Positions 21,133 to 37,240 of a DNA stretch of 64,000 bases are shown here, piece after piece (the stretch's first letter is position 1; the number at the start of each line of letters is the position of its first letter). Under the pieces are notes generated by a model. It saw only the letters and a program-made list of their open reading frames with translations, did no database searches and had not been told where the DNA came from. The translations under genes and the position numbers were made by a program. The DNA is from Macrolepiota albuminosa (lineage: Eukaryota; Basidiomycota; Agaricomycetes; Agaricales; Agaricaceae): assembly GCA_027475525.1 (NCBI GenBank), contig JAMWFC010000117.1, positions 2,962,183 to 3,026,182 of the forward strand, in the 5' to 3' direction.

Positions 21133-22290
21133 GGATTGAGCACTGAGTGGTGGAAAACCGAGGCCTTAACCGAACGAAGTGAGGTTGAGGCTGGGATTAA
21201 GCATTGAGTTGTGAAAACCGAGGCCTTAACCGAACGAAGTGAGGTTGAGGCTGGGATTAAGCATTGAGTTGTGAAAACCGAGGCCTTAACCGAACGAAGT
21301 GAGGTTGAGGCTGGGATTAAGCATTGAGTTGTGAAAACCGAGGCCTTAACCGAACGAAGTGAGGTTGAGGCTGGGATTAAGCATTGAGTTGTGAAAACCG
21401 AGGCCTTAACCGAACGAAGTGAGGTTGAGGCTGGGATTAAGCATTGAGTTGTGAAAACCGAGGCCTTAACCGAACGAAGTGAGGTTGAGGCTGGGATTAA
21501 GCATTGAGTTGTGAAAACCGAGGCCTTAACCGAACGAAGTGAGGTTGAGGCTGGGATTAAGCATTGAGTTGTGAAAACCGAGGCCTTAACCGAACGAAGT
21601 GAGGTTGAGGCTGGGATTAAGCATTGAGTTGTGAAAACCGAGGCCTTAACCGAACGAAGTGAGGTTGAGGCTGGGATTAAGCATTGAGTTGTGAAAACCG
21701 AGGCCTTAACCGAACGAAGTGAGGTTGAGGCTGGGATTAAGCATTGAGTTGTGAAAACCGAGGCCTTAACCGAACGAAGTGAGGTTGAGGCTGGGATTAA
21801 GCATTGAGTTGTGAAAACCGAGGCCTTAACCGAACGAAGTGAGGTTGAGGCTGGGATTAAGCATTGAGTTGTGAAAACCGAGGCCTTAACCGAACGAAGT
21901 GAGGTTGAGGCTGGGATTAAGCATTGAGTTGTGAAAACCGAGGCCTTAACCGAACGAAGTGAGGTTGAGGCTGGGATTAAGCATTGAGTTGTGAAAACCG
22001 AGGCCTTAACCGAACGAAGTGAGGTTGAGGCTGGGATTAAGCATTGAGTTGTGAAAACCGAGGCCTTAACCGAACGAAGTGAGGTTGAGGCTGGGATTAA
22101 GCATTGAGTTGTGAAAACCGAGGCCTTAACCGAACGAAGTGAGGTTGAGGCTGGGATTAAGCATTGAGTTGTGAAAACCGAGGCCTTAACCGAACGGAGG
22201 CCTTAACCGAACGAAGTGAGGTTGAGGCTGGGATTAAGCATTGAGTTGTGAAAACCGAGGCCTTAACCGAACGAAGTGAGGTTAGGGTGG
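21133..22290 (+). repeat. 60-bp tandem array (about 18 units)
   Basis: Perfect 60-bp periodicity: sixteen consecutive lines of the sequence from 21181 are identical. The first unit is diverged, and the end has a short 17-bp slip. Each unit holds GGCCTTAACC, an 11-nt loop GAACGAAGTGA and GGTTGAGGC, giving a potential hairpin stem of about 9-10 bp. No spacers, so it is not a CRISPR array. Confidence 0.93.
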
Positions 22291-22455
22291 AGGCTTAGTT
22301 GGGGGGGGTTTGGGGGCAAAGCCCCCAACGAGCTACGAAATTCGTGCCGAAGGCACGAATCGTAGCTCGTCTATATTGGGGGGGGTTTGGGGGCGAAGCC
22401 CCCAACGAGCTACGAAATTCGTGCCGAAGGCACGAATCGTAGCTCGTCTATAGTA
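22290..22455. repeat. GC-rich double-hairpin tail of module 1
   Basis: Two adjacent hairpins: GGGGGC-AAA/GAA-GCCCCC, and ACGAGCTACGAAATTCGTGCC paired with GGCACGAATCGTAGCTCGT around a GAA loop (2-nt bulge). The unit appears twice at 77-bp spacing, which is probably an assembly duplication. The same tail closes module 2 at 23740-23890. Confidence 0.85.
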
Positions 22456-22815
22456 TATGCGACGACTTTTGTGGGAATTTGATGTGATGACTAAAAATTT
22501 GTCAGCTGAGTCATCAATGACTAAGGCTGACAAATAGTTGTCTTTTTGGTCTGTTTTCAATAAATGTTGGTAGATAATGCTTAGAAAATTCAGATAAAAT
22601 CACCGAAAAATCAGAAAAAATTCGAGGCCTACTGATACACTGACTTGAGTTTTTCTGAGATTTATAAATGCTTAAAGAAATCTGAAAAATTCAAGAAAAA
22701 TTCAATTTAGCTTACAATAATGCTCTGAGAGTTGAGGCAAACTGGGGATTAAGCATTGAGTTGCAATTACCGAACGAAGTGAGGTTGAGGCCAGGAATGA
22801 GCACTGAGTTGTGAA

Positions 22816-23620
22816 ATGCGGAGGGAGGCCTTAACCGAACGAAGTGAGGTTGAGGCCGGGAATAAGCACTGAGTTGTGAGATGCGGAGGCCTTAACCGAA
22901 CGAAGTGAGGTTGAGGCCGGGAATAAGCACTGAGTTGTGAGATGCGGAGGCCTTAACCGAACGAAGTGAGGTTGAGGCCGGGAATAAGCACTGAGTTGTG
23001 AGATGCGGAGGCCTTAACCGAACGAAGTGAGGTTGAGGCCGGGAATAAGCACTGAGTTGTGAGATGCGGAGGCCTTAACCGAACGAAGTGAGGTTGAGGC
23101 CGGGAATAAGCACTGAGTTGTGAGATGCGGAGGCCTTAACCGAACGAAGTGAGGTTGAGGCCGGGAATAAGCACTGAGTTGTGAGATGCGGAGGCCTTAA
23201 CCGAACGAAGTGAGGTTGAGGCCGGGAATAAGCACTGAGTTGTGAGATGCGGAGGCCTTAACCGAACGAAGTGAGGTTGAGGCCGGGAATAAGCACTGAG
23301 TTGTGAGATGCGGAGGCCTTAACCGAACGAAGTGAGGTTGAGGCCGGGAATAAGCACTGAGTTGTGAGATGCGGAGGCCTTAACCGAACGAAGTGAGGTT
23401 GAGGCCGGGAATAAGCACTGAGTTGTGAGATGCGGAGGCCTTAACCGAACGAAGTGAGGTTGAGGCCGGGAATAAGCACTGAGTTGTGAGATGCGGAGGC
23501 CTTAACCGAACGAAGTGAGGTTGAGGCCGGGAATAAGCACTGAGTTGTGAGATGCGGAGGCCTTAACCGAACGAAGTGAGGTTGAGGCCGGGAATAAGCA
23601 CTGAGTTCTCTATACATACT
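22816..23620 (+). repeat. 61-bp tandem array (about 13 units)
   Basis: Period of 61 bp, shown by the one-base shift per 60-base line. The unit is a relative of the 60-bp repeat: it shares GGCCTTAACCGAACGAAGTG and the hairpin, but has GGGAATAAGCACTGAG in place of GGGATTAAGCATTGAG and ends GAGATGC. Units within the array are essentially identical, while the two arrays differ from each other, which indicates local homogenisation. Confidence 0.92.
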
Positions 23621-24499: not shown

Positions 24500-26468
24500 G
24501 TCAATTAATGGCTTGTCATGATTGCACAAATTCCAATTGCACATTCTTTAATAATTAATGCACTCATTCCAATTGTCTACCAGATGGACATATTGTACTA
24601 TGCGCTATGGTCACATTTGTTCCTCAAGAATGTGGACCTTGTCCACCCTCTTCTTTGATGGTGACCTGCTTTTGAAATGTCTTAACCTTTTGAGCAGCAA
24701 TTGGCACTTCTGGCTCTGCTAGAGTCATTGTCACTGTTTCCACCTCAAATAATGCCTGTTAAGGCACTCTGCTTACATTCTGCTGATGATTTGCGGCATT
24801 TTAACATCTAATATAGTCTTGCTATGACTTATTTGTTTAAAAAAGTGCATTCAATAGTTTCATTGCATTTGCAATCAATAGTGCTCATTGGCACATGCTT
24901 ATTTTGCATTTTACTGAATTGGCTAGCATGGCCATTGAGACTGCTGACCCTTATGCTGTCTTGCATTTGAGATATTCAACAACTTTGAGTTTGAAGATAC
25001 ACACAAATAATTTGATATATTCTGTTGAATCTGCATGAGGTACATCATGGCTCCTAGCAGCTAGTAATTGTAAATGCTTCACTTCATAAAGCTGCAAACA
25101 CTTTCATGTTGATTCTTTGATAACCAATAGATATTAGTCCAGCACCAGTTGTAACTAGATAGACAAGATCAAATGTGACCTTTTACTCTCCTCATTATCT
25201 GAGGAGTCTAGTTTGGATTCTAAATCCAGAACTTTCCTGAGGCCTTCATGCCTCACCTTTGGCTGCCTGCTGATCCCTCCAGGCAACTTTTAGTCTTTAG
25301 ATACCAATGGCACCTGCCTCAGCTGTACAACATTGTTATTCTTACTACTGACCTTTATTGCTGGTCCTTACTGCCATCCATATGTCATCAACAACAACTG
25401 TCCTGGTCCAGCAGCAGTATCTGCCACATACTGCAAATGCTGCTTAGTTGAGGCAGTCTAAAATAAGGTGCTGTGTGCAAAAGTGCTGCCTTGCATTAGC
25501 TCCAAATACTGCATGAGGTCTGGTTAACCTTTTGACTAAGCTAATGAGCTTTCAGGCAATACCAGGTACATCAGTGAAGGCATCTGGCTTCTTGGTAGCA
25601 ACACTCCTCTAGTTTACTACCAGGCCTTACTATGGACATCATCTGTAACATGAATAGTCCACCCAGCATTTCAATCACAAGATAACTTTTCATCCTGCTT
25701 TAGCAGGGGCTGGTACATAGACACAGCTGGCATTTTTACAGCTTAGGAGACAGGTGGGTCATCTGTATCTGGAAAAGGAGGCTCCAGATCAAGAGAGCTA
25801 GTGATAGAAGCATGTTGTCAATATAATGCCAACAGAAGTCAAGAGTTTTGATAAGTTGCCTAGTCAGTAACAAGCCTAGAGTCTCAAGCTGATAGCAGAA
25901 GATTTAAAAAAATGTAACCATTGGTTATGAGCTAGAACCTTCTTGTGTGGATTACACAGTGCTAAATCAGACCACTGTATCAGGTTTGACTAAAACTAGA
26001 GTGAATACAAAATGTTGTTTTTATATAATACTCTACTGTTTAGTAACAGCATTGTTGATGTATGTAACTAGTGTGATAATCCATTACACTTGCCCAGTCC
26101 AATGATTATAGTCCAAAATAAGCACTTTATTTCCATAATCCTCATCACTCATTTCCTTGATGGCACTAGAAAACACTCGCAAGGATTATCAGTAATGTAG
26201 GGTTGTCACCTTAGTCCAGGCTTCTGGAATTTCTCTTAGAGAAATGTTGGTATTATTCTTCTAATTCCAGAATTCAGATTGCTAATTGTTAGCATTGTTT
26301 TGTCTTCAGAAGTCGTCTTAACTATTAATCTTGCTAATACATTAAATGGCCTTTTTAATAGTAAATTGTATGCAGGTAGTTGAAGAATGTGGATTTGAAG
26401 ATAGAAAGAACATAAGGTTGCCAATAGTACAGGGAACATTCCAAGCCATTTCCAAAGATTGATCAATA
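24500..26468 (-). mobile_element. decayed LTR-retroelement DNA, including the protease end of element B
   Basis: CpG-poor, AT-rich DNA without intact genes. The part next to the Tc1 element (26466-26236, minus strand) continues the element B protease: IDQSLEMAWNVPCTIG, then, after frameshifts, PAYNLLLKRPFNVLARLIV. The rest probably holds further element B sequence and the 5' end of element A, but the border between them cannot be placed by eye. Confidence 0.55.
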
Positions 26469-27684
26469 CAGTGGCTCAAAAAACTGTCCCAATGTTTTAT
26501 ACTTTTTGAAAGATGACATTGGCATGAAGGATGGAAAGTATGTAAAATCCTGATTAAATCATGTAAAATACTATGGCATCGTAGCTACAGAATGAATCTA
26601 GGTTTATGTAATCAAGATCAAAACTGATGGAGCAATAGCCATTTTAAAATATTCACTCATTGGGACAGTTTTTTGAGCATCTCTAATTTTTCAGGTTTAT
26701 CCTTATTTTACTCAGAAATAAAGAGTAAGTTGCATGTGGGAATATAACCAAAGTCATGTGACCATGTTTAGATATATTTGGGAGTAGTTCAAGCTGGTTG
26801 AACCACATCTTGACCTTCAACCACTATCATAAAACCTATTCCTTCTGCACAACACTCTACTGTTGCTTCTCTTCTTGCTCAAGGGTATTCTCTGGTCAGA
26901 TTGGAGCTCAAACTGGTCTAGGGAAGTCTACTACTGGGAGGATTGGTAGAGAGTTGGAGATGGACAAGGAAAACCATCCTGGAGGCCATCCTGCTAAGCT
27001 TACTCCATGTGATAAACAGGCTATTGTTTGACAAATCTCAACTAGGAGACTTGATACAGCTGTCCAGGCCACTAATTTTATCAACAACATCATTTCCAAC
27101 CCTGTCTCTTTCAAGACTGTCTGGAATGTGTTGAAGGAGGAGGGGTATTGGTCTGCTACCAAGAGAAAAGTTCCTATGCTCAAAGCTAAACATTGACAAC
27201 TACAGCTTAAATGGGCTCAGAAGCATCAGAACTGGACTATAGAGGACTGGAAAAGGGTGTTGTGGACAGATGAGACAAAGATTAATAGGATTGGGTCAGA
27301 TGGGAAGCAGTATGTGTGGAAGCTACAAGAAGAAGACATTTCAAGACCGAACAACTACACCTACTGTGAAGCATGGAGGAGGGAATAATCTCATGGTATG
27401 GGGCTGTATGAGTTGGAATGGGGTAGAAAAGCTTGTAGAGGTGGTGGGGATTATGAATGCAGAGCAGTACTGTGAAATTTTAGATGATGGAGCAAAGGAG
27501 AACTTTGAGAAGTTGGAGATGGAGGAGGGTGCCTACTACTTTCAACAGGACAATAACTCCAAACACAACTCCAAGAGGGCTGACAAGTGGTTTGAGGACA
27601 ACAACTTTAATGTCCTTTGGTGGCTAGCCCAATCCCCTGATCTCAACCCTATTGAACATCTCTGGAAGTACCTCAAAGAGCAAC

Positions 27685-27949
27685 TGTAACAGGGGGACCT
27701 CTTCGAGGTCCCTATTCATTATTTCACCATATCCGCACCCTTAGGGGTGTGGGAAGCATATCGTATTAGAGGACATAATTACAGTAGTAATTATTTCTCT
27801 AATTAATTTACTTTAATTAATGTACTTTAAATTATAGTGTATTTACTCGTATTTGGGTAGATACTTTTTTACTTACACTACGTACAGAGAAATCTACCGA
27901 TTTGGCAGATTCTGTGTCTTGTGTGAGTAAGCCAGTAATATCTCTTACA
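27685..27949 (+). repeat. 5' LTR of the young element
   Basis: 265 bp, starts TG and ends CA, identical by eye to the copy at 34280-34544. The sequence right after it (CTTTTTTGAATCG) does not begin with the TGG usual for a tRNA primer site, so the priming mode is unclear. Confidence 0.95.
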
Positions 27950-27958
27950 CTTTTTTGA

Positions 27959-28027
27959 ATCGTCAAACGACGATAATCTGTACGCGAACATACAAGAATT
28001 ATACATTCTAGAACTTAGTTCTAGAAT
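27959..28027 (+). promoter_or_regulatory. leader hairpins between LTR and gag
   Basis: Two perfect hairpins: ATCGTC-AAAC-GACGAT (27959-27974) and ATTCTAGAAC-TTA-GTTCTAGAAT (28005-28027, 10-bp stem). Retroelement leaders often carry packaging or dimerisation structures here; that role is inferred only from position and symmetry. Confidence 0.5.
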
Positions 28028-28093
28028 CTCGATTGACAGCGACATCAACCATCAAGCTTCTTGAGCGCCGAACGCAAGCCGATTGATAGTGGA

Positions 28094-31000
28094 ATGGATC
28101 ACGAACCTCTGCCACCAGAACGGAACGACAATGTCGCCCCGGTGCAGAAGGACGAGAATGCCACACCAGTGGCAGCACACACTCAAGATCAGCAGGTGGC
28201 AAATTGGGAAGAGGCTGAGGTCGAGCTGACCCCAGCCCGAACAGATATGCCGGGGAGCTTGCTCATGACAGAGCAGAGACGTCCAGTCCAGCGTAGAGTT
28301 GGAAGAGAGGTTGGGGTGGCTAGTGAGTCACCGCCGATCATACAGGTACCTCAAAGGGCACCGGCCAGCGTAGAGTTGGAAGAGAGGTTGGGGTGGCTAG
28401 TGAGTCACCGCCGATCATACAGGTACCTCAAAGGGCACCGGTGCGATTCTCGGGCTTAAGGACGTTGGGCGGGGGTGTGGCCACACACGAAGAAAAAAAA
28501 CCATCCCCGTTTAGGGCAGGGGCTCCTGGAATGGCAGGAGAGGCTTGGACAAGTTCGGAAGGTAGACGAGAGGACGCTGTCCATGAGACACCATGGAGGA
28601 ATATACCGGAATCGACGCCATTGAGTCGACGACCTGGAGGGCAGCGGCCAGCAGTACCGGTGCAGACTACGGGGACAAGAAGACGTCAGCCCACAGTGGC
28701 TGATGATACGTCTGATGAAGACGAGAACGGACGCTATGAAGCGACCCTCGACGTTCAAATAGCTATGCTCTGGGCAAGGTTCCCAGAGATAAGTAAATTG
28801 TCGACGAGGGCTAGGTTGAAGTTGTATGTGAACAAGCACATGCAATTGATAGAGGCTAGAGGCGAGGCGCTTCCAGAAGTGGGAACAGATGAGTATATTT
28901 CGGCATATATGCAGATCTTGGACCTGGAAGCTCAAAGCTACCTTGACCGTAAAAGTCGCCGAGGGTCGGCTGCATCCACCCCAGCGGAGGCGGAGCTAAT
29001 CCCTACGATTCCCGCAGGGAGAGGGAGTTCTCCTCACATTGAGGAGGCGTTTAGCAACATATTTGCCCCACAACAGGCGGGGGAGACTCAGGAGCAATAC
29101 CAGACGCGAGTAGCGGCTGGGCAGAGGCAGCAGCGGTTCGTAGGGTACCGACCTACAGCTATGTCCGTGGCCGAGACGGTGACGTCCAGACCGGCTACAC
29201 ATGTACTGTTGGAAACAGTACCGGAGGAAGTGTTGTCACCTCAGGTGAAACGAGAAGCGGAGGACCCAGTGGTGCCGGCTAGGGTACCACTTGCCGACAC
29301 GTTTCAGGACCGAGTCGCATTCCAAAGAATGCGGATCCAGGATTTACGGGGGCAAGGCTACTCTCGTATTGATGATCAGGGAATCAGTTTCAATGGGTCC
29401 CAACCCATTGATGAAATGAGGCGAGAATTTGTGGAACGTGCGCAGAACAGTCGTCGAAGTAAGCACGGGAGCGATATCAGCAGTCGAGAGGAGCCGCGGG
29501 AGTTGGGGCCGGATAGACGGAATGGAGGGCAGGGCCCTCGGGACGACAGATCTCACAGCCCCAGAGGACTGATGACTCGGTCTGTGCGAGCCTTCTCGAC
29601 GTTCGTCCCTGCTGAGGGACGCAACAAGACACCTGGGATGAATGAGGCCACCAGAGCCTACACTGATAGCATGCATCGACGGTTGGTGAGCATAATCGAT
29701 GACGCGGTTGGGATTGCGTTGCAATTACCCGAAGGGATCAAACCACGGAGGGCTGATCCAAAGCATATTCTGCCCTATAAGGGGGGAACAAAGTTCAGCG
29801 AGCTGGAGGATTGGACCATGGATGTATGCTACCATCTGGCAGCATGTCTGTACGGTGGAGATCGTATGGACAAGGAGCGAGTGTTTGTGCTGCCCGAGTT
29901 TTTGGAAGGTCCGGCAAAGAGGTGGTTTCGTCATCACGTTCTTCACCATAATCGGGCGAGGCAGCACTGGACGTTCAAAGATGTGATCCTTGAACTGTAC
30001 AATCGATTTGTAAGTGCATCCACAATGCAGGATGCACGAGAGGCGTTTTACTCGGCAGTGTACACCGAGGCCCTCGGAGTACAAGGGTTCTATGATACCC
30101 TTGTTGACCATGCTCAAAATATGGCCATTTACCCCGATGCATGGACAGTGTGCGAGACCTTTCTCAAGGGCATCCCCGCTGAGATGAGGCGAGTGCTAAT
30201 CCGGGATGACGGATTATCTCCAGAAATAAATGAAGTTGAGGAATTCGTAGCGCATGCCATACATTACGAACAGGCGTTGAAGACGGCACGCCACTTTGAT
30301 CTGCATAGCTCGCGAGTAAAAGCTGCGGGGCCGATGGAGGCACGCCAGTCACGAATGATCGGCACTTTCCTGGTCAGGAAAGCGGACATGGAACGTAACC
30401 GAAACCCTAGGTTCGTATTGAGACGAACGTTGTCGAGGCCTCATCGACCTAAGCCGATTGAGCCAAAACTTGTGGCTGAAGAGCGTGGTCACCATCCGCC
30501 AAAACCTGAGGCCAATCGTGACCCGCGGAAAGAGCGGGGAACAGGCCCGGGTGGGACGGGTGAAAAACGCATAGTAACATGCTATGCGTGCGGTGAGAAA
30601 GGACATTTCGCGAGTACTTGCCCTAAAAGGGGGCAAATAGCGGGCAAACCACGAGCATATGTACGCGCTGCGCACACTGAGGCAGAGGAGTCTGCGAATG
30701 ACGCAGATGAGGAGCTAGACGTGGAGGAGGAGGATGAGAGCTCCCAGTCTGGCGAGGAAGGCCCAGTTGATGACGAGGTAGGGACAGTGATGATCGATGG
30801 GGATGAGTATGTGGAAGTGGATGTGTACGACTCGGAGCTCTACGCTAGTTCCGCAGAACAAGAGTTCTTGATGGCGTTAACGGACTTTCCTGAGGATGAG
30901 GAAAGCATGCAGCTGGGCGCGGGTCGAGTAAAGGTTCACAAAGTGAAACTTAGAAAGGCAGCGCGCAAGTTGACCCGGCCGCAACTGCGCCGTGAGGATA

Positions 31001-31440
31001 AGGAATGCTTGGCTACCTACGTCAAGGTTGGAGGTCACGAAGCATGGACTTTGTGGGATTCGGGAAGTACAACCACTGGAGTAACGCCCCAGTTCTGCCA
31101 GGTCCATGACTTGGCGGTGCATCAGCTGGAGCGGCCCATAACTTTGCAACTTGGTACTGTCGGCAGTCGCGCTGCAGTACAGTTTGGAGCAAACCTCAAG
31201 CTAACCGTCCCAGGGTCAACAAGCGTTGAATACATGGACGTGGCGAACTTCGACCGGTACGACATGATTGTAGGGACGCTGTACATGCGCAAGCATCAGG
31301 TGGTACTTGACTTCTGTAATAACAAGGTTATTGTGGCGGGTACTGAGATTCCAGCAGTACGGGTCGCAGTGGAGGAAGCTGGGGAGAGAGTTCGCCGCCA
31401 ACGCGCGACGGAGAGGAAGAGAGCGGTGGGCACCAACTGA
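28094..31440 (+). CDS. Gag-protease polyprotein of the young LTR element
   Basis: First ATG after the leader is at 28094. The written sequence changes frame at 28288-28441, a 77-bp perfect duplication that is most likely an assembly error; without it one frame of 1089 codons runs to the stop at 31438. Contents: a disordered N-terminus, a capsid-like part (FSELEDWTMDVCYHLAACL, LYNRFVSASTMQDAREAFY, IPAEMRRVLI), a CCHC knuckle CYACGEKGHFASTC (about 30580), an acidic stretch, and an aspartic protease with LWDSGSTTTG (about 31050) and the second-half motif YDMIVGT (about 31260). The stop is UGA followed by CUA. The zinc knuckle would bind the RNA, and the protease would mature the particle. Confidence 0.88.
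28288..28441. repeat. 77-bp perfect tandem duplication in gag (probable assembly artefact)
   Basis: Copies at 28288-28364 and 28365-28441; flanking bases differ on both sides, so the unit is exactly 77 bp. It shifts the gag frame. Confidence 0.88.
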
Positions 31441-31443
31441 CTA
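31438..31443 (+). promoter_or_regulatory. UGA-CUA stop-readthrough context
   Basis: The Gag-PR frame ends AAC TGA CTA, and the same frame stays open afterwards. UGA followed by CUA is the best established leaky stop context in eukaryotes. The diverged element A has AAC TGA CTA at the same place (18107-18099, minus strand), again with an open frame downstream. Confidence 0.75.
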
Positions 31444-34145
31444 CGCTCGGTGGTGCGACCGGCTACCGTGGAGGATGAGCCAGAGGAGGTAAACCCTATC
31501 GGAGGCTTACCCGAGGAGTGTGGAGCGATCTTGATGTCCACGGAAGAATGGGCTAAGCATCAGAGTGTGCAACGGGAGGAACTCACCGCAGGTGCGGTGG
31601 GTGGTCAGGATGTGCATTGCACTCGGCCAGCGCTTGGGGAGAGGTCGCAGGAGGATCGGAGGTCGAGCAGACGAGGCCCACAGGAAGGGTCGCGTCGAGA
31701 GACAAGGCAGTGGTCTCCCGAGCGGGAGACAACTCAGGATAAAGGAAAAGGGAAGGAACGGGCGACAGAAAGAGATCAGTGGCGGGATGAGCCACACGCA
31801 GAGGCGTTGTGGAGGCGTTTATTACAGGCGGGTCACCGCGTGCCGCCTGAGACCGAGTTCCTCCGAGATACAGTGGCCCAAGTAGTGGTCACTGGGTTGT
31901 TAGACGAGATAGCGCTGTTGCAAGAGCGGCAGCATAATACTATTGCAACCTTCAACAAGGCGCTGAAACGTCGGGCGGCCACGCCCGAATCTGCCCTGGA
32001 GTCAGAACCGAAGAGAACCCGGGCAGATCGACCACGGGCGGAGGACAGCGCTCGACCTCGTGAAGGTCGAGTAACGGGGGTGCTGCCGTTGGAGCAGCGG
32101 ATAGAGAGAGAAAGTGGTCCGTCAACGTCGTCGGAGTTGTCCAGACAAGGGTCGGTGAGGAGTGCGATATCTTCGACGCAAGCGCCGAAGAGGAAAGAGA
32201 GAGCAGCGAAGCAGGTGGATGAATTTTTGGTGCAAACGGTGACGTTTGCAGCAGATGTGCCACAAGGAGCGCCGGGAGGAGTGCTGAGGTTTCAGCCCCC
32301 GGTAGAGTATGAACCGCCAGCGGAAAGCTACCCCGAGAAGTGGCTGGACGCCGATCCTCGAACGGAGAACGAGGCAGAAAATGTGGTGCCCTCAGGTGCA
32401 CCAATGGTTGTTGCAGGAGTATCAACGGTAGCCTATCCCCACAGAACGAGGCAGAAAATGTGGTGCCCTCAGGTGCACCAATGGTTGTTGCAGGAGTATC
32501 AACGGTAGCCTATCCCCACGGGGATAGTGAAGACGAGGATGCGAACTATATCAGTTCGAATGAGGCTACTCCTGACGAGGAGGAGTCGAAGCATGAGCGG
32601 GGAGTGCGGGTCGCTCGCAATATGAAGAAGAACAAACGGAGGAAGAATGAACAGGCTGAGTTCGAGCGGAATAAGCAGAGACGAGCCGAGGAAGCTACGG
32701 GGATTATCCCCCCGAGCCTCGGTGTTCGAATATTTGCGGACCACACTGTGGAACGCCTCAACTCGTTCTTCAATGGAGGGTTGGATCGACACTTTTATTA
32801 TTCGTCCGCGAATAATACCGTATATGTGGGATCGGAGGCTCGACAGGCCTACATCCACGAGTCCAGCCATGTGAGTGGGTATGGTGGATCAAAGGGAACC
32901 CTCAGTAAGGTCGTGCCTAGAGGGTTCCCCATGAATCCCCTCCAATTACGCAAGCTGGTGGAACTAGTTCGTAACCGGTACGCGCCAGCCGACGACAGGA
33001 TCGCCGGCTATCAATTGTTTCGAGAGTTCCGCCGAGTGAGCGATGCTTGCGACGTCAGCGCCCGTGACAAGACCATGAAGCTGGTCTTGACCCATAGTGA
33101 TTACAGCCAGGTGGACCCCCCATTTGAGGCGCGATCGGCGGTGATGAGGATGATGCCCCTACCTGTCCCGGATGGGATAGTGCGCACGAAGGAGTGGGGG
33201 AGCCACCGAAACACGACGCTCGCAGGCGTCAGCTTCGAGCAGATTGAGAAGACGCTGGACCTGGAGAAATGGGCCCAGAATGCACTGTACTTCGGGCGAC
33301 CAGGCATGCCAAATGCCATTCCTGGGATCGCATTTGACACCGCATATCGAATGCACTGGAGGACCATCTTTGGCCATGCCCTGATTAGGTCCTTGTCCCC
33401 CCAGGGCAAGGCTCGATCGACGTTTGCCCGGCAAATGGCATTAGTGTTGGCCAAGCCGGGATTGTACCGCGAGGCGGTACAAGACTTTAATACGGCCCAT
33501 CCCAACGAACCGTTCGTTCCAGCTCCATGGAATATCGTGTCCATCATGACGCCCGTCTTCCCGGATGAGGCCGCGAGCACCATTACTGAAGACGACGTGA
33601 TCCGGGTGATGCTTCACAACCGCATCCCCGTGGAGTGGGCTGACCATGCGTATACGTATGGAGTGGTGTTCCTCGAACACCAATTTTTCCATCCTACTCC
33701 GGCCATGCCACGCTACGTTCATGTTGATAATGAGCGTCATGTTCGAATGCATCGTTATGGGGCACCGGCTGCTATACCGGATTGGGATGGTTGGAGAACA
33801 CCAACCACCAAGGACGTTTACCGTCTTCGGGTATTGTTGGCAAAGGAGGAGGACGAGCAGCGCCGGTTTTACGCTAACCACGGGTTGCATTACTACATTG
33901 GGTCAGACCCCAATGTGCATCATCTGTGGAAGAGGCAGGAGCAACATGGGCCCTTGCCCACGAGTTGTCCGACCGCAAGCGCTGGCCCAGCACAGGAGCC
34001 CGACACGTCGGGTCGTCCACTTGCCTTGGCGCCGCCATCAAGGCCGCCATCGGTCGATGAGCGTATGCAGTCCCCCCAGTTGGAGGACTACCCGTCAAGC
34101 CCACAGGAGCCAATTGCATCGCCTATCGCACCTACCATGGACTGA
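31441..34145 (+). CDS. unrecognised readthrough protein in place of pol
   Basis: In frame with gag after the UGA. A 77-bp duplication at 32366-32519 splits it artificially; without it 875 codons are open up to TGA at 34143. The first about 35 residues include GAILMSTEEW, similar to AILMPKEEF at the same place in element A, so this linker is ancestral. Then come a charged, disordered region, a Lys/Arg-rich stretch (MKKNKRRKN, a likely nuclear signal), and a folded-looking part of about 430 residues from GVRIFADHTVERLNSFFNG through NPLQLRKLVELVRNRYAP to YANHGLHYYIGSDPNVHHLW, and a Pro/Ser tail. I do not recognise a family. There is no RT, integrase, protease or chromodomain motif. It may be captured host DNA or a second structural protein. 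Confidence 0.7.
32366..32519. repeat. 77-bp perfect tandem duplication in the readthrough ORF (probable assembly artefact)
   Basis: Copies at 32366-32442 and 32443-32519. Leaving one out joins the frame upstream to the frame downstream. Confidence 0.88.
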
Positions 34146-34259
34146 TAGCGCGGGTCACAGAGTCGAATGTTGCAGACCGTACGGAGCCAATTGCATCGCC
34201 TATCGCACCTACCATGGACTGATAGCGCGGGTCACAGAGTCGAATGTTGCAGACCGTAC
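34106..34259. repeat. 77-bp perfect tandem duplication near the 3' LTR (probable assembly artefact)
   Basis: Copies at 34106-34182 and 34183-34259, spanning the stop codon of the readthrough ORF; the protein end is not changed. Confidence 0.88.
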
Positions 34260-34267
34260 AACGGTCT

Positions 34268-34279
34268 GAAAGGGGGGCA
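34268..34279 (+). promoter_or_regulatory. polypurine tract
   Basis: GAAAGGGGGGCA immediately before the 3' LTR; expected primer site for plus-strand DNA synthesis. Confidence 0.75.
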
Positions 34280-34544
34280 TGTAACAGGGGGACCTCTTCG
34301 AGGTCCCTATTCATTATTTCACCATATCCGCACCCTTAGGGGTGTGGGAAGCATATCGTATTAGAGGACATAATTACAGTAGTAATTATTTCTCTAATTA
34401 ATTTACTTTAATTAATGTACTTTAAATTATAGTGTATTTACTCGTATTTGGGTAGATACTTTTTTACTTACACTACGTACAGAGAAATCTACCGATTTGG
34501 CAGATTCTGTGTCTTGTGTGAGTAAGCCAGTAATATCTCTTACA
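34280..34544 (+). repeat. 3' LTR of the young element
   Basis: 265 bp, identical by eye to the 5' LTR; followed by the GCAAC target duplication and the remaining transposase codons of the host Tc1 element. Confidence 0.95.
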
Positions 34545-34942
34545 GCAACTTAGGCAGTATGAAACATCTCCTTATGGTGTGCATGAATTATGGGAGAGGG
34601 TTGCAAAGGAGTGGGATGAAATACCACCAGAGGTATGCCAAAGACTAATAGAAAGCATGCCTAAAAGGATTCAAGCAGTTATCAAGGCAAATGGAGGACA
34701 TACAAAGTACTAGATACTAAAATTAGAGATGCTCAAAAAACTGTCCCAATGAGTGAATATTTTAAAATGGCTATTGCTCCATCAGTTTTGATCTTGATTA
34801 CATAAACTTACATTCATTTTGTAGCTACGATGCCATAGTATTTTACGTGATTTAATCAGGATTTTAAGTACTTCCCATCCTTCATGCCAATGTCATCTTT
34901 CAAAAAGTATGAAACATTGGGACAGTTTTTTGAGCCACTGTA

Positions 34943-37240
34943 GTGCTGTTAGTGCTCTGCATATTAAGGATAATTACAGGGTCATAAATAATGCCAAGCT
35001 TGTTAGCAATATTGGCAGCTATAGAAATGATCTGTGATCTGCTATCTACAATTGATTCTATCTTGTTTTTTCTATTTATAGTTAACATAATCAATTGAAT
35101 GGCATGGAAGTCTTGAGCTACAGTTAGAATAGTGGAATCATCATCAGATCTTAGCAATTTTAGGTAGGTTTCAACCAGATCAACTAATATAGCTTCTTTT
35201 GGTGATTCAGTCACTTCTACTGTCTTTGTTGCTACAGCTTCTATGGTATATACAAAATCTGGTAGCACATTGTCACATTTGTCTATGGCTGTTACATTGT
35301 TAGCCACATTTTGTCAGGGGATAACTGCTGTGCACATTTAATTTCTGATGTCAGACACCACACTGCATAGTTCTCCAACCAATAGTGTGACTTTGCTTTT
35401 CATAATATGATCAAAGACTTCCTTAGATTTTTCTAAGTCATAGGTTGGTGCTATTAGTTGGTAGCCCCCTATAGGCTTGTCTGATGCTTCAAAGCTTTGA
35501 TTGACTGGTGAGGTGTAGTTACCAGCAAGGCCTGAATAAGAGTGTAGTAGAGATTTGGTCATGGTGGGCATCTTAGTTGTGTCAGATGCATCAGCCTTAG
35601 CACTAAAAGTCAAAGACTTTGCTAGTGCAGAATCTGTTGTAGTGCTTGTAGATCTATATTTCTTTAATGGCTGCTTGCCCTTCTTAATTTCTACATCATC
35701 AAAGACCTGGTTTTTAGCAACTTTAACTCTCTTTCTAGCATTTCAATCCTTTCTTCTTAAAACAAAGTGGGTCGCTCATTAACAGCATTGAATTGAAGTA
35801 CCCCATGAATTAGCACTTGTTGGAAAGTCAATTTTGCTTCAGTCAAGGTTGTGCTGTTTAAATTGCCTGATGCTAGGTTCCCTGGATTGCAATAGTGCCA
35901 TTCATCAATATGTCCTTAGAAAGTCTAATGTTCTGATTGAGATGTTAGCATCCAAGGGTAGGACTATTTTACCATCCATGCCCCAGCATGCTCTCTCTTG
36001 ACATAAATACTGCTCAAGTATAGTGCAGTGGCCTCTAGTCATTGTATGTCCAGCATCTCCACAGAAATGGCAAAGTACTGTCTGCATGTTGTTCCTAGAT
36101 GTTTTAAAGCTAGTTGAGATCAAAGTTTCTAACTTGTTCATAATGTTAGTGACAGCAGTATTAACTGTGTTTTTCAAATCCTCCTTTTTGATGAAGCCTG
36201 TTTAATTGTTGGTCGCACTTGGAGCTGATGACCCTGCCATGGGTACCATTTCTCTGTTATTCACTCTAGTGGATTACTACAATGAGATGTCAGTATCCAT
36301 ACCCTTCAGCATCCACTTGCCTGCCTCAATGACCTGATCTATATCATACAGCTCCTCCAGATGGTATTCAGACATTAAAATTTCCAAGTAATATGCTATC
36401 CTAGTCTATAATGAGGTAGAAATACCTTGCTGAAATAGTCATTGCTCTTCATTTCTATGGAGTTTCCCATTATGTACCAGCCACCTCATAATTTGCTAAA
36501 AGTTGCAATAATAAGTCAATAGCATGCCCAAAGTATAGATTTCAGTCACAAAAATATCTTGGACTAGTTTCTGAATCTCCATTACTGTATAACACATAGC
36601 TTCTTTGGTACCAGAATATAAGCAAATGATCACCATTTTTCATTTTTTGTAGATAAATGGCCTTGGTGTCAAGCCATCTTTTAATCCTTGGAACTTGGTT
36701 AAGCCTGTCCAGAATTCTGCTGTATTATACAAAACATATCTAGCAGCATACTTCTTTATTTGCATGTTGTCTGTGATACAACAGTTGCAGAGCAAGTACT
36801 CCAATTCTCAAAAATACTGTGTTAGCTCATGAGGCTTTGTTTCATTTCATTTTGGCAATAAAAAGTGGTTTCTGAGTGGCATATGCTGGATATTTGCCTG
36901 CTCTATAGAAGCAAGTGTGTCTGTCAAAATGGGAATAGTGGTTGTAGTGCTAATGTCGCTGAGTATTTCTGGTATCAATGTAACAAATACAGATTCAAGT
37001 AATTCCGAGTTTTTAGGTTCTGGCAATAATGACCTAAATAACTCTTCTAAAGATATGAGCAGCATGTAGTTTTCATCTGCTAGATATTCAAACAGTTGAG
37101 AGAATGGGAAAAAGCTTTTGGCTAGGCTATCTGGGACAGCCTTGAGCTTCTGATCTAAAGTCTGCCTTGGTAGTGTGCCCAGTAAATGTGGTGAGTTGAT
37201 GCTAAATAGTTTAAATGTGCTCTCCAAGAGAAGGTGGTGC
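34943..37240 (-). pseudogene. gag-protease remnant of element B
   Basis: Broken frames on the minus strand: gag N-terminal part (FSINSPHLLGTLPRQTL ... YLADENYMLLISLEELF) at 37200-36850, zinc-knuckle part at 36177-35905, and linker and protease at 35613-34943 (YDPVIILNMQSTNST at the end). The Asp-Ser-Arg-Ser tetrad is a likely mutated Asp-Ser-Gly-Ser. No continuous gene survives. Confidence 0.7.

What the first reader, a model, noticed from the sequence alone, without database searches (positions are those of the whole stretch)
31438..31443. Gag-protease stop is UGA-CUA, followed by an open frame: probable programmed readthrough
Seen: the Gag-PR frame ends AAC TGA CTA and stays open in the same frame beyond the stop; it is open for 875 codons when one 77-bp assembly duplication is discounted. 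Established: UGA followed by CUA is the strongest known readthrough context in eukaryotes, and gammaretroviruses join gag to pol by readthrough. Inference: this fungal Ty3/Gypsy lineage controls its Gag to fusion ratio by stop readthrough instead of frameshifting or a single ORF.
Basis: partly seen in the sequence, partly recalled or inferred. Interest (0 to 1): 0.88.

Follow-up and report, generated by a model that had tools for sequence, protein, structure and literature searches.

The report
Mushroom retrotransposon with leaky UGA stop
A mobile element in a mushroom-type fungal genome separates its coat-protein gene from its copying-enzyme gene by one probably leaky stop signal, which related element families in the same genome have kept; the mechanism is known from other fungal elements, and the copy in this window has lost its copying enzyme.

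Summary
The TGA-CTA at 31438-31443 is real and ends a Gag-protease frame in a young Ty3/Gypsy insertion (27685-34544; identical 265-bp LTRs). The frame behind it is open, but it is not pol: it is pol's first ~64 codons joined, by a ~4.3-kb deletion found in this copy alone, to the rest of a third ORF. Full copies in the same 100-Mb genome read Gag-PR (1108-1122 codons), one TGA, then RT-RNaseH-integrase in the same frame (1311-1317 codons), then ORF3. Eleven copies have both frames intact. Five families all keep TGA followed by CT (next base A, A, T, A, C), although synonymous sites are near saturation between the two families compared. In family B the hexamer is the most conserved codon-phase 6-mer of 39; within family A alone it is not exceptional. 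Exceptions are few and lie in interrupted or short copies. Splicing and restart at a downstream Met fit poorly. UGA-CU is the published minimal readthrough signal in a basidiomycete, and Schizosaccharomyces Tj1, Tosmo and Tcry1 have UGA-CU(A/G) at the same boundary. Readthrough is very likely, but known in kind. New here: protease before the stop, a large ORF3, sharing across families. No translation data were available.

The parts
27685..27949 (+). 5' LTR, 265 bp, identical to the 3' LTR
   Evidence: D1, 100%
34280..34544 (+). 3' LTR
27680..27684 (.). target-site duplication GCAAC, left copy
   Evidence: read
34545..34549 (.). target-site duplication GCAAC, right copy
   Evidence: read
28327..31437 (+). 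Gag-protease reading frame as it stands here; its 5' part is disturbed by the 77-bp duplication 28288-28441. 1108 codons between stops in full copies of the same family
30577..30627 (+). CCHC zinc knuckle (PF00098)
   Evidence: E 1.9e-5
31012..31338 (+). aspartyl protease domain (PF08284), wholly upstream of the stop
   Evidence: E 3.7e-5
31438..31443 (+). TGA stop followed by CTA: the proposed readthrough site
31441..31633 (+). first ~64 codons of pol (upstream of RT), in frame with Gag-PR
31634..31636 (+). deletion junction with about 3 unexplained bases; ~4.3 kb of pol and the start of ORF3 missing; seen in no other match
31637..34145 (+). remainder of ORF3 (protein of unknown function), interrupted in the assembly by the 77-bp duplication 32366-32519
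34268..34279 (+). polypurine tract before the 3' LTR
   Evidence: read
28288..28441 (.). 77-bp exact tandem duplication, probable assembly artefact
32366..32519 (.). 77-bp exact tandem duplication, probable assembly artefact
34106..34259 (.). 77-bp exact tandem duplication, probable assembly artefact

Best explanation
The site is the Gag-PR/Pol boundary of a large Ty3/Gypsy family, probably a chromovirus. Most ribosomes stop at UGA and release Gag-protease. A small fraction insert an amino acid at UGA, favoured by the following CU(A), and continue in frame to give Gag-PR-RT-RNaseH-integrase, which sets an excess of Gag over Pol. Shown: one conserved stop in an otherwise continuous frame, conserved context, coding constraint directly behind the stop, domain content on either side. 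Inferred: that readthrough occurs, and its rate. In the window copy the site is a relic of that system: pol is deleted, and readthrough would at most give a Gag-PR-ORF3 fusion.
For: Full copies: Gag-PR 1108 or 1122 codons, TGACTA, then pol 1317 or 1311 codons in the same frame (L049, L052, L053). Pol carries RT, RNaseH, integrase and a weak chromodomain match (L049 and L053). Crossing, 11 copies (5 family A, 6 family B) have both full-length frames and no stop inside the matches; in the 6 B pairs the coordinates leave exactly one codon, and the 5 A pairs share one spacing, that of L049. Family A: 28 of 29 readable sites TGA CTA, one TAA CTA, among 30 loci, the window included. 96 further junctions, picked from 150 matches: family C 20 of 20 TGA CTT; B-type 67 of 76 TGA CTA in frame. 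20 junctions picked from 150 matches of a PR profile: family D 12 of 12 TGA CTA, family E 3 of 3 TGA CTC, 1 rearranged, 4 of another lineage without a stop at this place. Between families A and B fourfold sites are 31% (Gag-PR) and 33% (pol) identical, 27% being expected at saturation from pol composition. Family B hexamer deviates in 2.9% of rows against 13.2% in flanks, the lowest of 39 codon-phase 6-mers; 10.0% in flanks without CpG columns. The 33-34 codons behind the stop have pN below pS in 10 of 10 family pairs. UGA-CU suffices for readthrough in Ustilago maydis (PMC4207609, section 6 read). Tj1 needs its gag stop for integration (PMC4600332, passages).
Against: No RNA, ribosome or protein data. 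Within family A alone the hexamer is not unusually conserved: it is one of 16 runs of five or more near-invariant columns in 360. The ten pN/pS comparisons are not independent, and synonymous sites are near saturation. No RNA structure behind the stop: z from -1.8 to +1.0 in five families. Of 76 B-type junctions nine are not in-frame TGA CTA. Agaricus bisporus and Panaeolus gene models (P0020, P0022, P0016) run past the place where most relatives end. In Candida Tca2 a gag-pol UGA junction did not direct readthrough in S. cerevisiae (PMC2194720, abstract).
Confidence: 0.87

Rival explanations
1. The stop is removed by splicing of a short intron; CTGAC around it would be the branch point.
For: CTGAC, a fungal branch-point-like word (recalled), spans the stop in the A, B, D and E representatives.
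Against: Codon -1 varies: 18 of 28 family A rows have T there and family C has CCA, so CTGAC is lost while TGA-CT stays. No GTRNGT donor in the 73-100 nt upstream of the stop in any of five representatives. Codons behind the stop are constrained in frame.
Confidence: 0.05
2. Pol is made separately, by internal promoter, IRES or re-initiation at the Met about 31 codons behind the stop.
For: An in-frame Met lies at residue 30-32 behind the stop in all five representatives. In families C and E a second adjacent ATG has a purine at -3, and in C the first has too (read). Tca2 has a minor promoter in its gag-pol junction (PMC2194720, abstract).
Against: The codons between stop and that Met are constrained as protein in the same frame. 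Same-frame pol and a fixed UGA-CU would have no reason. The base at -3 of that ATG is T, T and C in families A, B and D (read), a weak start context (recalled).
Confidence: 0.06
3. An ordinary terminator or nonsense mutation kept by copying of one master element; no recoding.
For: Many copies are near-identical and many carry decay stops, often TGA.
Against: Five families share TGA-CT, and between A and B synonymous sites are near saturation; intact frames run on for 1311-1317 codons with RT and integrase.
Confidence: 0.02

Closest known systems
Tj1, Tosmo1-3 and Tcry1 (Schizosaccharomyces Ty3/Gypsy chromoviruses)
   Same: In-frame TGA followed by CT(A/G) at the gag-pol boundary, pol in the same frame, chromodomain (PMC10085805, passages). 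For Tj1, removing the stop left virtually no transposition (PMC4600332, passages).
   Different: There PR lies downstream of the stop, codon -1 is GAA, Gag lacks CCHC, and the full-length Tcry1-1 is annotated at about 5 kb (passages). Here PR and a CCHC knuckle lie upstream, codon -1 varies, and full copies are about 11 kb with an extra ORF3.
Gammaretroviruses (murine leukemia virus)
   Same: One stop between gag and pol in one frame, overcome by readthrough (PMC5009743, passages).
   Different: MLV uses UAG with a downstream pseudoknot and its protease lies behind the stop (recalled). No unusual folding found here.
Alpharetroviruses
   Same: Protease encoded within the gag frame (recalled).
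   Different: They join pol by -1 frameshifting (recalled), not readthrough.
Tca2 of Candida albicans
   Same: UGA between gag and pol (PMC2194720, abstract).
   Different: A Ty1/copia element (recalled) with a potential pseudoknot; its junction alone gave no readthrough in S. cerevisiae.
UGA-CU(A) readthrough of fungal peroxisomal enzymes (Ustilago maydis tpi1 and others)
   Same: Same core UGA CU; the first two bases after the stop mainly set efficiency (PMC4207609 section 6).
   Different: Host genes with short extensions, not retroelements.
Basidiomycete Gypsy families of Novikova et al. 2010
   Same: Fungal Gypsy elements up to more than 13 kb; an additional ORF of unknown function is named in a figure legend (PMC2864245 section 5).
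   Different: 'Stop codon' and 'frameshift' do not occur in its main text; membership in its named clades was not tested here.

Membership tests
Ty3/Gypsy LTR retrotransposon | LTRs, target-site duplication, polypurine tract | tested here: met
Ty3/Gypsy LTR retrotransposon | Domain order Gag, PR, RT, RNaseH, integrase | tested here: met
   In full copies L049 and L053 (the Gag profile itself only below cut-off); in the window copy RT to integrase are absent
Chromovirus | Chromodomain at the C terminus of integrase | tested here: inconclusive
   PF00385 at 1253-1296 of 1317 (E 8e-4) and 1251-1294 of 1311 (E 9.4e-3): right place, but below the curated cut-off in both
Named fungal chromovirus clade (MarY1, Laccy1/2, Tcn, Tf1 and so on) | Position in an RT-integrase tree | not tested
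   No reference sequences were fetched
Readthrough-type retroelement | One stop between gag and pol, pol in the same frame without frameshift | tested here: met
Readthrough-type retroelement | Stop and context conserved beyond neutral expectation | tested here: met
   not exceptional within family A alone
Readthrough-type retroelement | Fusion protein made; stop needed for transposition | not testable with these tools
   needs reporter, proteomics or transposition assay
Gammaretrovirus-like readthrough | Downstream pseudoknot or stable structure | tested here: not met
   z -1.8 to +1.0 over five representatives and three lengths; pseudoknots not modelled
UGA-CUA readthrough motif | UGA CU core, A next | tested here: met
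   Core in five of five families; A next in A, B and D only, T in C, C in E

The most novel reading that the evidence does not exclude
UGA-CU readthrough is the ancestral gag-pol strategy of a mushroom-wide (Agaricales) lineage of large three-ORF Gypsy elements that carry protease before the stop. Every Gag then carries protease and only RT-integrase is rationed. An internally deleted copy such as the window's could make a readthrough-dependent Gag-PR-ORF3 fusion, as a non-autonomous passenger.
Probability: 0.4. Interest if true: 0.55.

Novelty: new variant of a known kind. Interest (0 to 1): 0.45.

Why it matters
Five families in one genome act as a natural mutational scan: UGA-CU is kept while both neighbours drift, in line with the minimal signal measured in Ustilago. 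The lineage carries protease on the Gag side of a readthrough stop, whereas the fission-yeast elements with this signal carry it on the Pol side; that allows a test of what the Gag to Pol ratio must ration. It also warns that gene callers may split or mis-splice such elements.

Tried and rejected
Pfam and PDB searches of ORF3 pieces: nothing above cut-off. ORF3 whole-length search found nothing among a capped candidate list; a region search (also capped) found 5 relatives. Viral contig scan with the PR piece: no relative. RNA structure behind the stop: none. Conservation inside family A alone: not informative. The protein-guided alignment of the five junctions misplaced the stop for some rows, so the context was compared anchored on the stop. 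Literature searches; in those listings (open-licence full texts only, best rows shown) I saw no report of stop readthrough in a basidiomycete Gypsy element. Passages of PMC6980582 and PMC3248453 gave nothing on the gag-pol boundary.

Full report
What is there. At 31435-31443 the window reads AAC TGA CTA; the Gag-protease frame 28327-31440 ends at this TGA and the same frame stays open behind it. The site lies in an LTR element at 27685-34544 with two identical 265-bp LTRs, target-site duplication GCAAC and a polypurine tract. The Gag-PR frame has a CCHC knuckle and an aspartyl protease domain. The element sits inside a transposon with a DDE_3 match and 227-bp inverted arms at 26464-26690 and 34719-34945, Tc1/mariner-like by recall.

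What lies behind the stop. No RT, RNase H or integrase is found there. The other copies match the window up to about 31622-31633 (L030, the most distant, only to 31523). In the four same-family stretches fetched past pol (L047-L050) the match resumes at 31637-31641. A query over the junction finds only left or right halves elsewhere (41 matches, a capped list). The window copy has therefore lost about 4.3 kb, and its open frame is the first ~64 codons of pol joined to ORF3. Whether the deletion is real or an assembly error cannot be told here.

What full copies look like. L049, L052 and L053 read Gag-PR of 1108 or 1122 codons, TGACTA, and pol of 1317 or 1311 codons in the same frame. L047 and L048 have the same order with interrupted pol; L050 and L051 are decayed. 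Pol of L049 and L053 has RT, RNase H, integrase and a chromodomain match below cut-off. ORF3 follows, about 1010-1030 codons between stops. Crossing the PR-piece search (150 matches, capped) with the pol-start search (119 matches), 11 copies have both full-length frames without a stop in either match: 5 of family A and 6 of family B; rows with a stop inside were left out. In the six B pairs the coordinates leave exactly one codon between the frames; the five A pairs share one spacing, that of L049. The hexamer itself was read in all 5 A copies and in 2 of the 6 B copies. Some may be duplicates of one another.

Conservation. Family A: 30 loci, site readable in 29 (L028 not), of which 28 TGA CTA (the window included) and one TAA CTA (L025). 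From I picked 96 of 150 matches, leaving out family A and many near-identical B copies, and fetched them as 191-base junctions. Of these 20 are family C, all TGA CTT, and 76 are B-type: 67 in-frame TGA CTA, one TGA CTG (L075), one TGA TTA (L127), one TAA CTA (L077), one TAA CTG (L087), one TAA TAT (L088), one frame-shifted TGACTA (L085), and three with no stop found at the site (L110, which has TGACTA in another frame, L121, L128) (the script put L140 with family C by a chance word, corrected here and). The six stop-bearing deviants lie in copies whose open frames are interrupted or short. From the PR-profile search (150 matches, capped) I picked 20 junctions: 12 family D, all TGA CTA; 3 family E, all TGA CTC (L153 has a further stop upstream); one rearranged (L165); and 4 of another lineage without a stop at this place: L154 and L159 have none in the stretch, L155 and L163 meet one about 79 and 65 codons on.

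Is it more than chance. Inside family A it is not: 16 runs of five or more columns are as conserved. In family B the hexamer deviates in 2.9% of rows against 13.2% in flanking columns, the lowest of 39 codon-phase 6-mers; without CpG columns the flanks deviate in 10.0%. Between families A and B fourfold third positions are 31% (Gag-PR, 65 of 211) and 33% (pol, 91 of 274) identical, against 27% expected at saturation from pol composition; the other family pairs were not measured over long stretches. Aligned on the stop, the five representatives share T-G-A-C-T and then differ at once.

Mechanism. A same-frame pol behind a single UGA with a fixed CU points to readthrough. Protein constraint starts directly behind the stop: over 33-34 codons pN is below pS in 10 of 10 family pairs, ratio 0.38-0.80, pairs not independent. 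This speaks against a start at the Met 30-32 codons on. Splicing is disfavoured because the branch-like CTGAC is lost where codon -1 ends in T or A while TGA-CT is kept, and no GTRNGT donor lies in the 73-100 nt upstream. No unusual RNA folding was seen behind the stop, so the short context seems to be the signal. In U. maydis UGA followed by CU is sufficient, and UAG or UAA reduce readthrough (PMC4207609, section 6 read).

Beyond this genome. Relatives of the PR-containing part occur in Termitomyces (70% identity), Tricholomella, Lyophyllum, Psilocybe, Panaeolus, Agaricus and Leucocoprinus among 73 hits. Of the first 50 hits, 38 end 3-7 residues behind a shared motif like R-R-x-R-x-x-E/D-K (counted), so the place of the stop is widely conserved. 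Which stop codon it is could not be read from protein records. P0016, P0020 and P0022 run past it, by a continuous frame or a predicted intron. ORF3 gave five relatives in a capped search: three Termitomyces, one metagenome protein, one Lyophyllum shimeji.

Known and new. Tj1, Tosmo1-3 and Tcry1 of fission yeasts have TGA followed by CT(A/G) between gag and pol (PMC10085805, passages), and Tj1 needs its stop (PMC4600332, passages). The same mechanism in a basidiomycete lineage is thus a variant of a known kind. It differs by the protease lying before the stop, a CCHC knuckle, size, and ORF3. Caution comes from Tca2, whose UGA junction did not direct readthrough in yeast (PMC2194720, abstract).

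Noticed in passing
window, 16 sites such as 20736, 28288, 32366, 34106, 55871, 60107, 62083: Two-copy tandem repeats of 77 bp recur through the window, suggesting unmerged overlaps of an assembler with k = 77; they break reading frames in the element and perhaps elsewhere.
   Followed up: partly
31637-34145 and ORF3 of full copies (L041, L045, L170): ORF3, about 1010-1030 codons between stops, sits where env would be, has no Pfam match above cut-off in the pieces scanned and five relatives found (three Termitomyces, one metagenome, one Lyophyllum). Its C-terminal part gave a poor structure model.
   Followed up: partly
26464-34945: The retroelement is inserted in a transposon with a DDE_3 match at 27243-27686 and 227-bp inverted arms, 96% complementary.
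   Followed up: no
L053 8190-8192; L049 8389-8391: Pol ends in TAG with ORF3 on in the same frame in L053 (family B), but in TGA with ORF3 in another frame in L049 (family A); how ORF3 is expressed is open.
   Followed up: no
L154, L155, L159, L163: Another Gypsy-like lineage of the same genome runs on from protease without a stop at this place (two of four meet a later stop), so at least two gag-pol strategies seem to coexist.
   Followed up: partly
21133-23607: Long tandem array with 60-61-bp units next to further 77-bp duplications.
   Followed up: no
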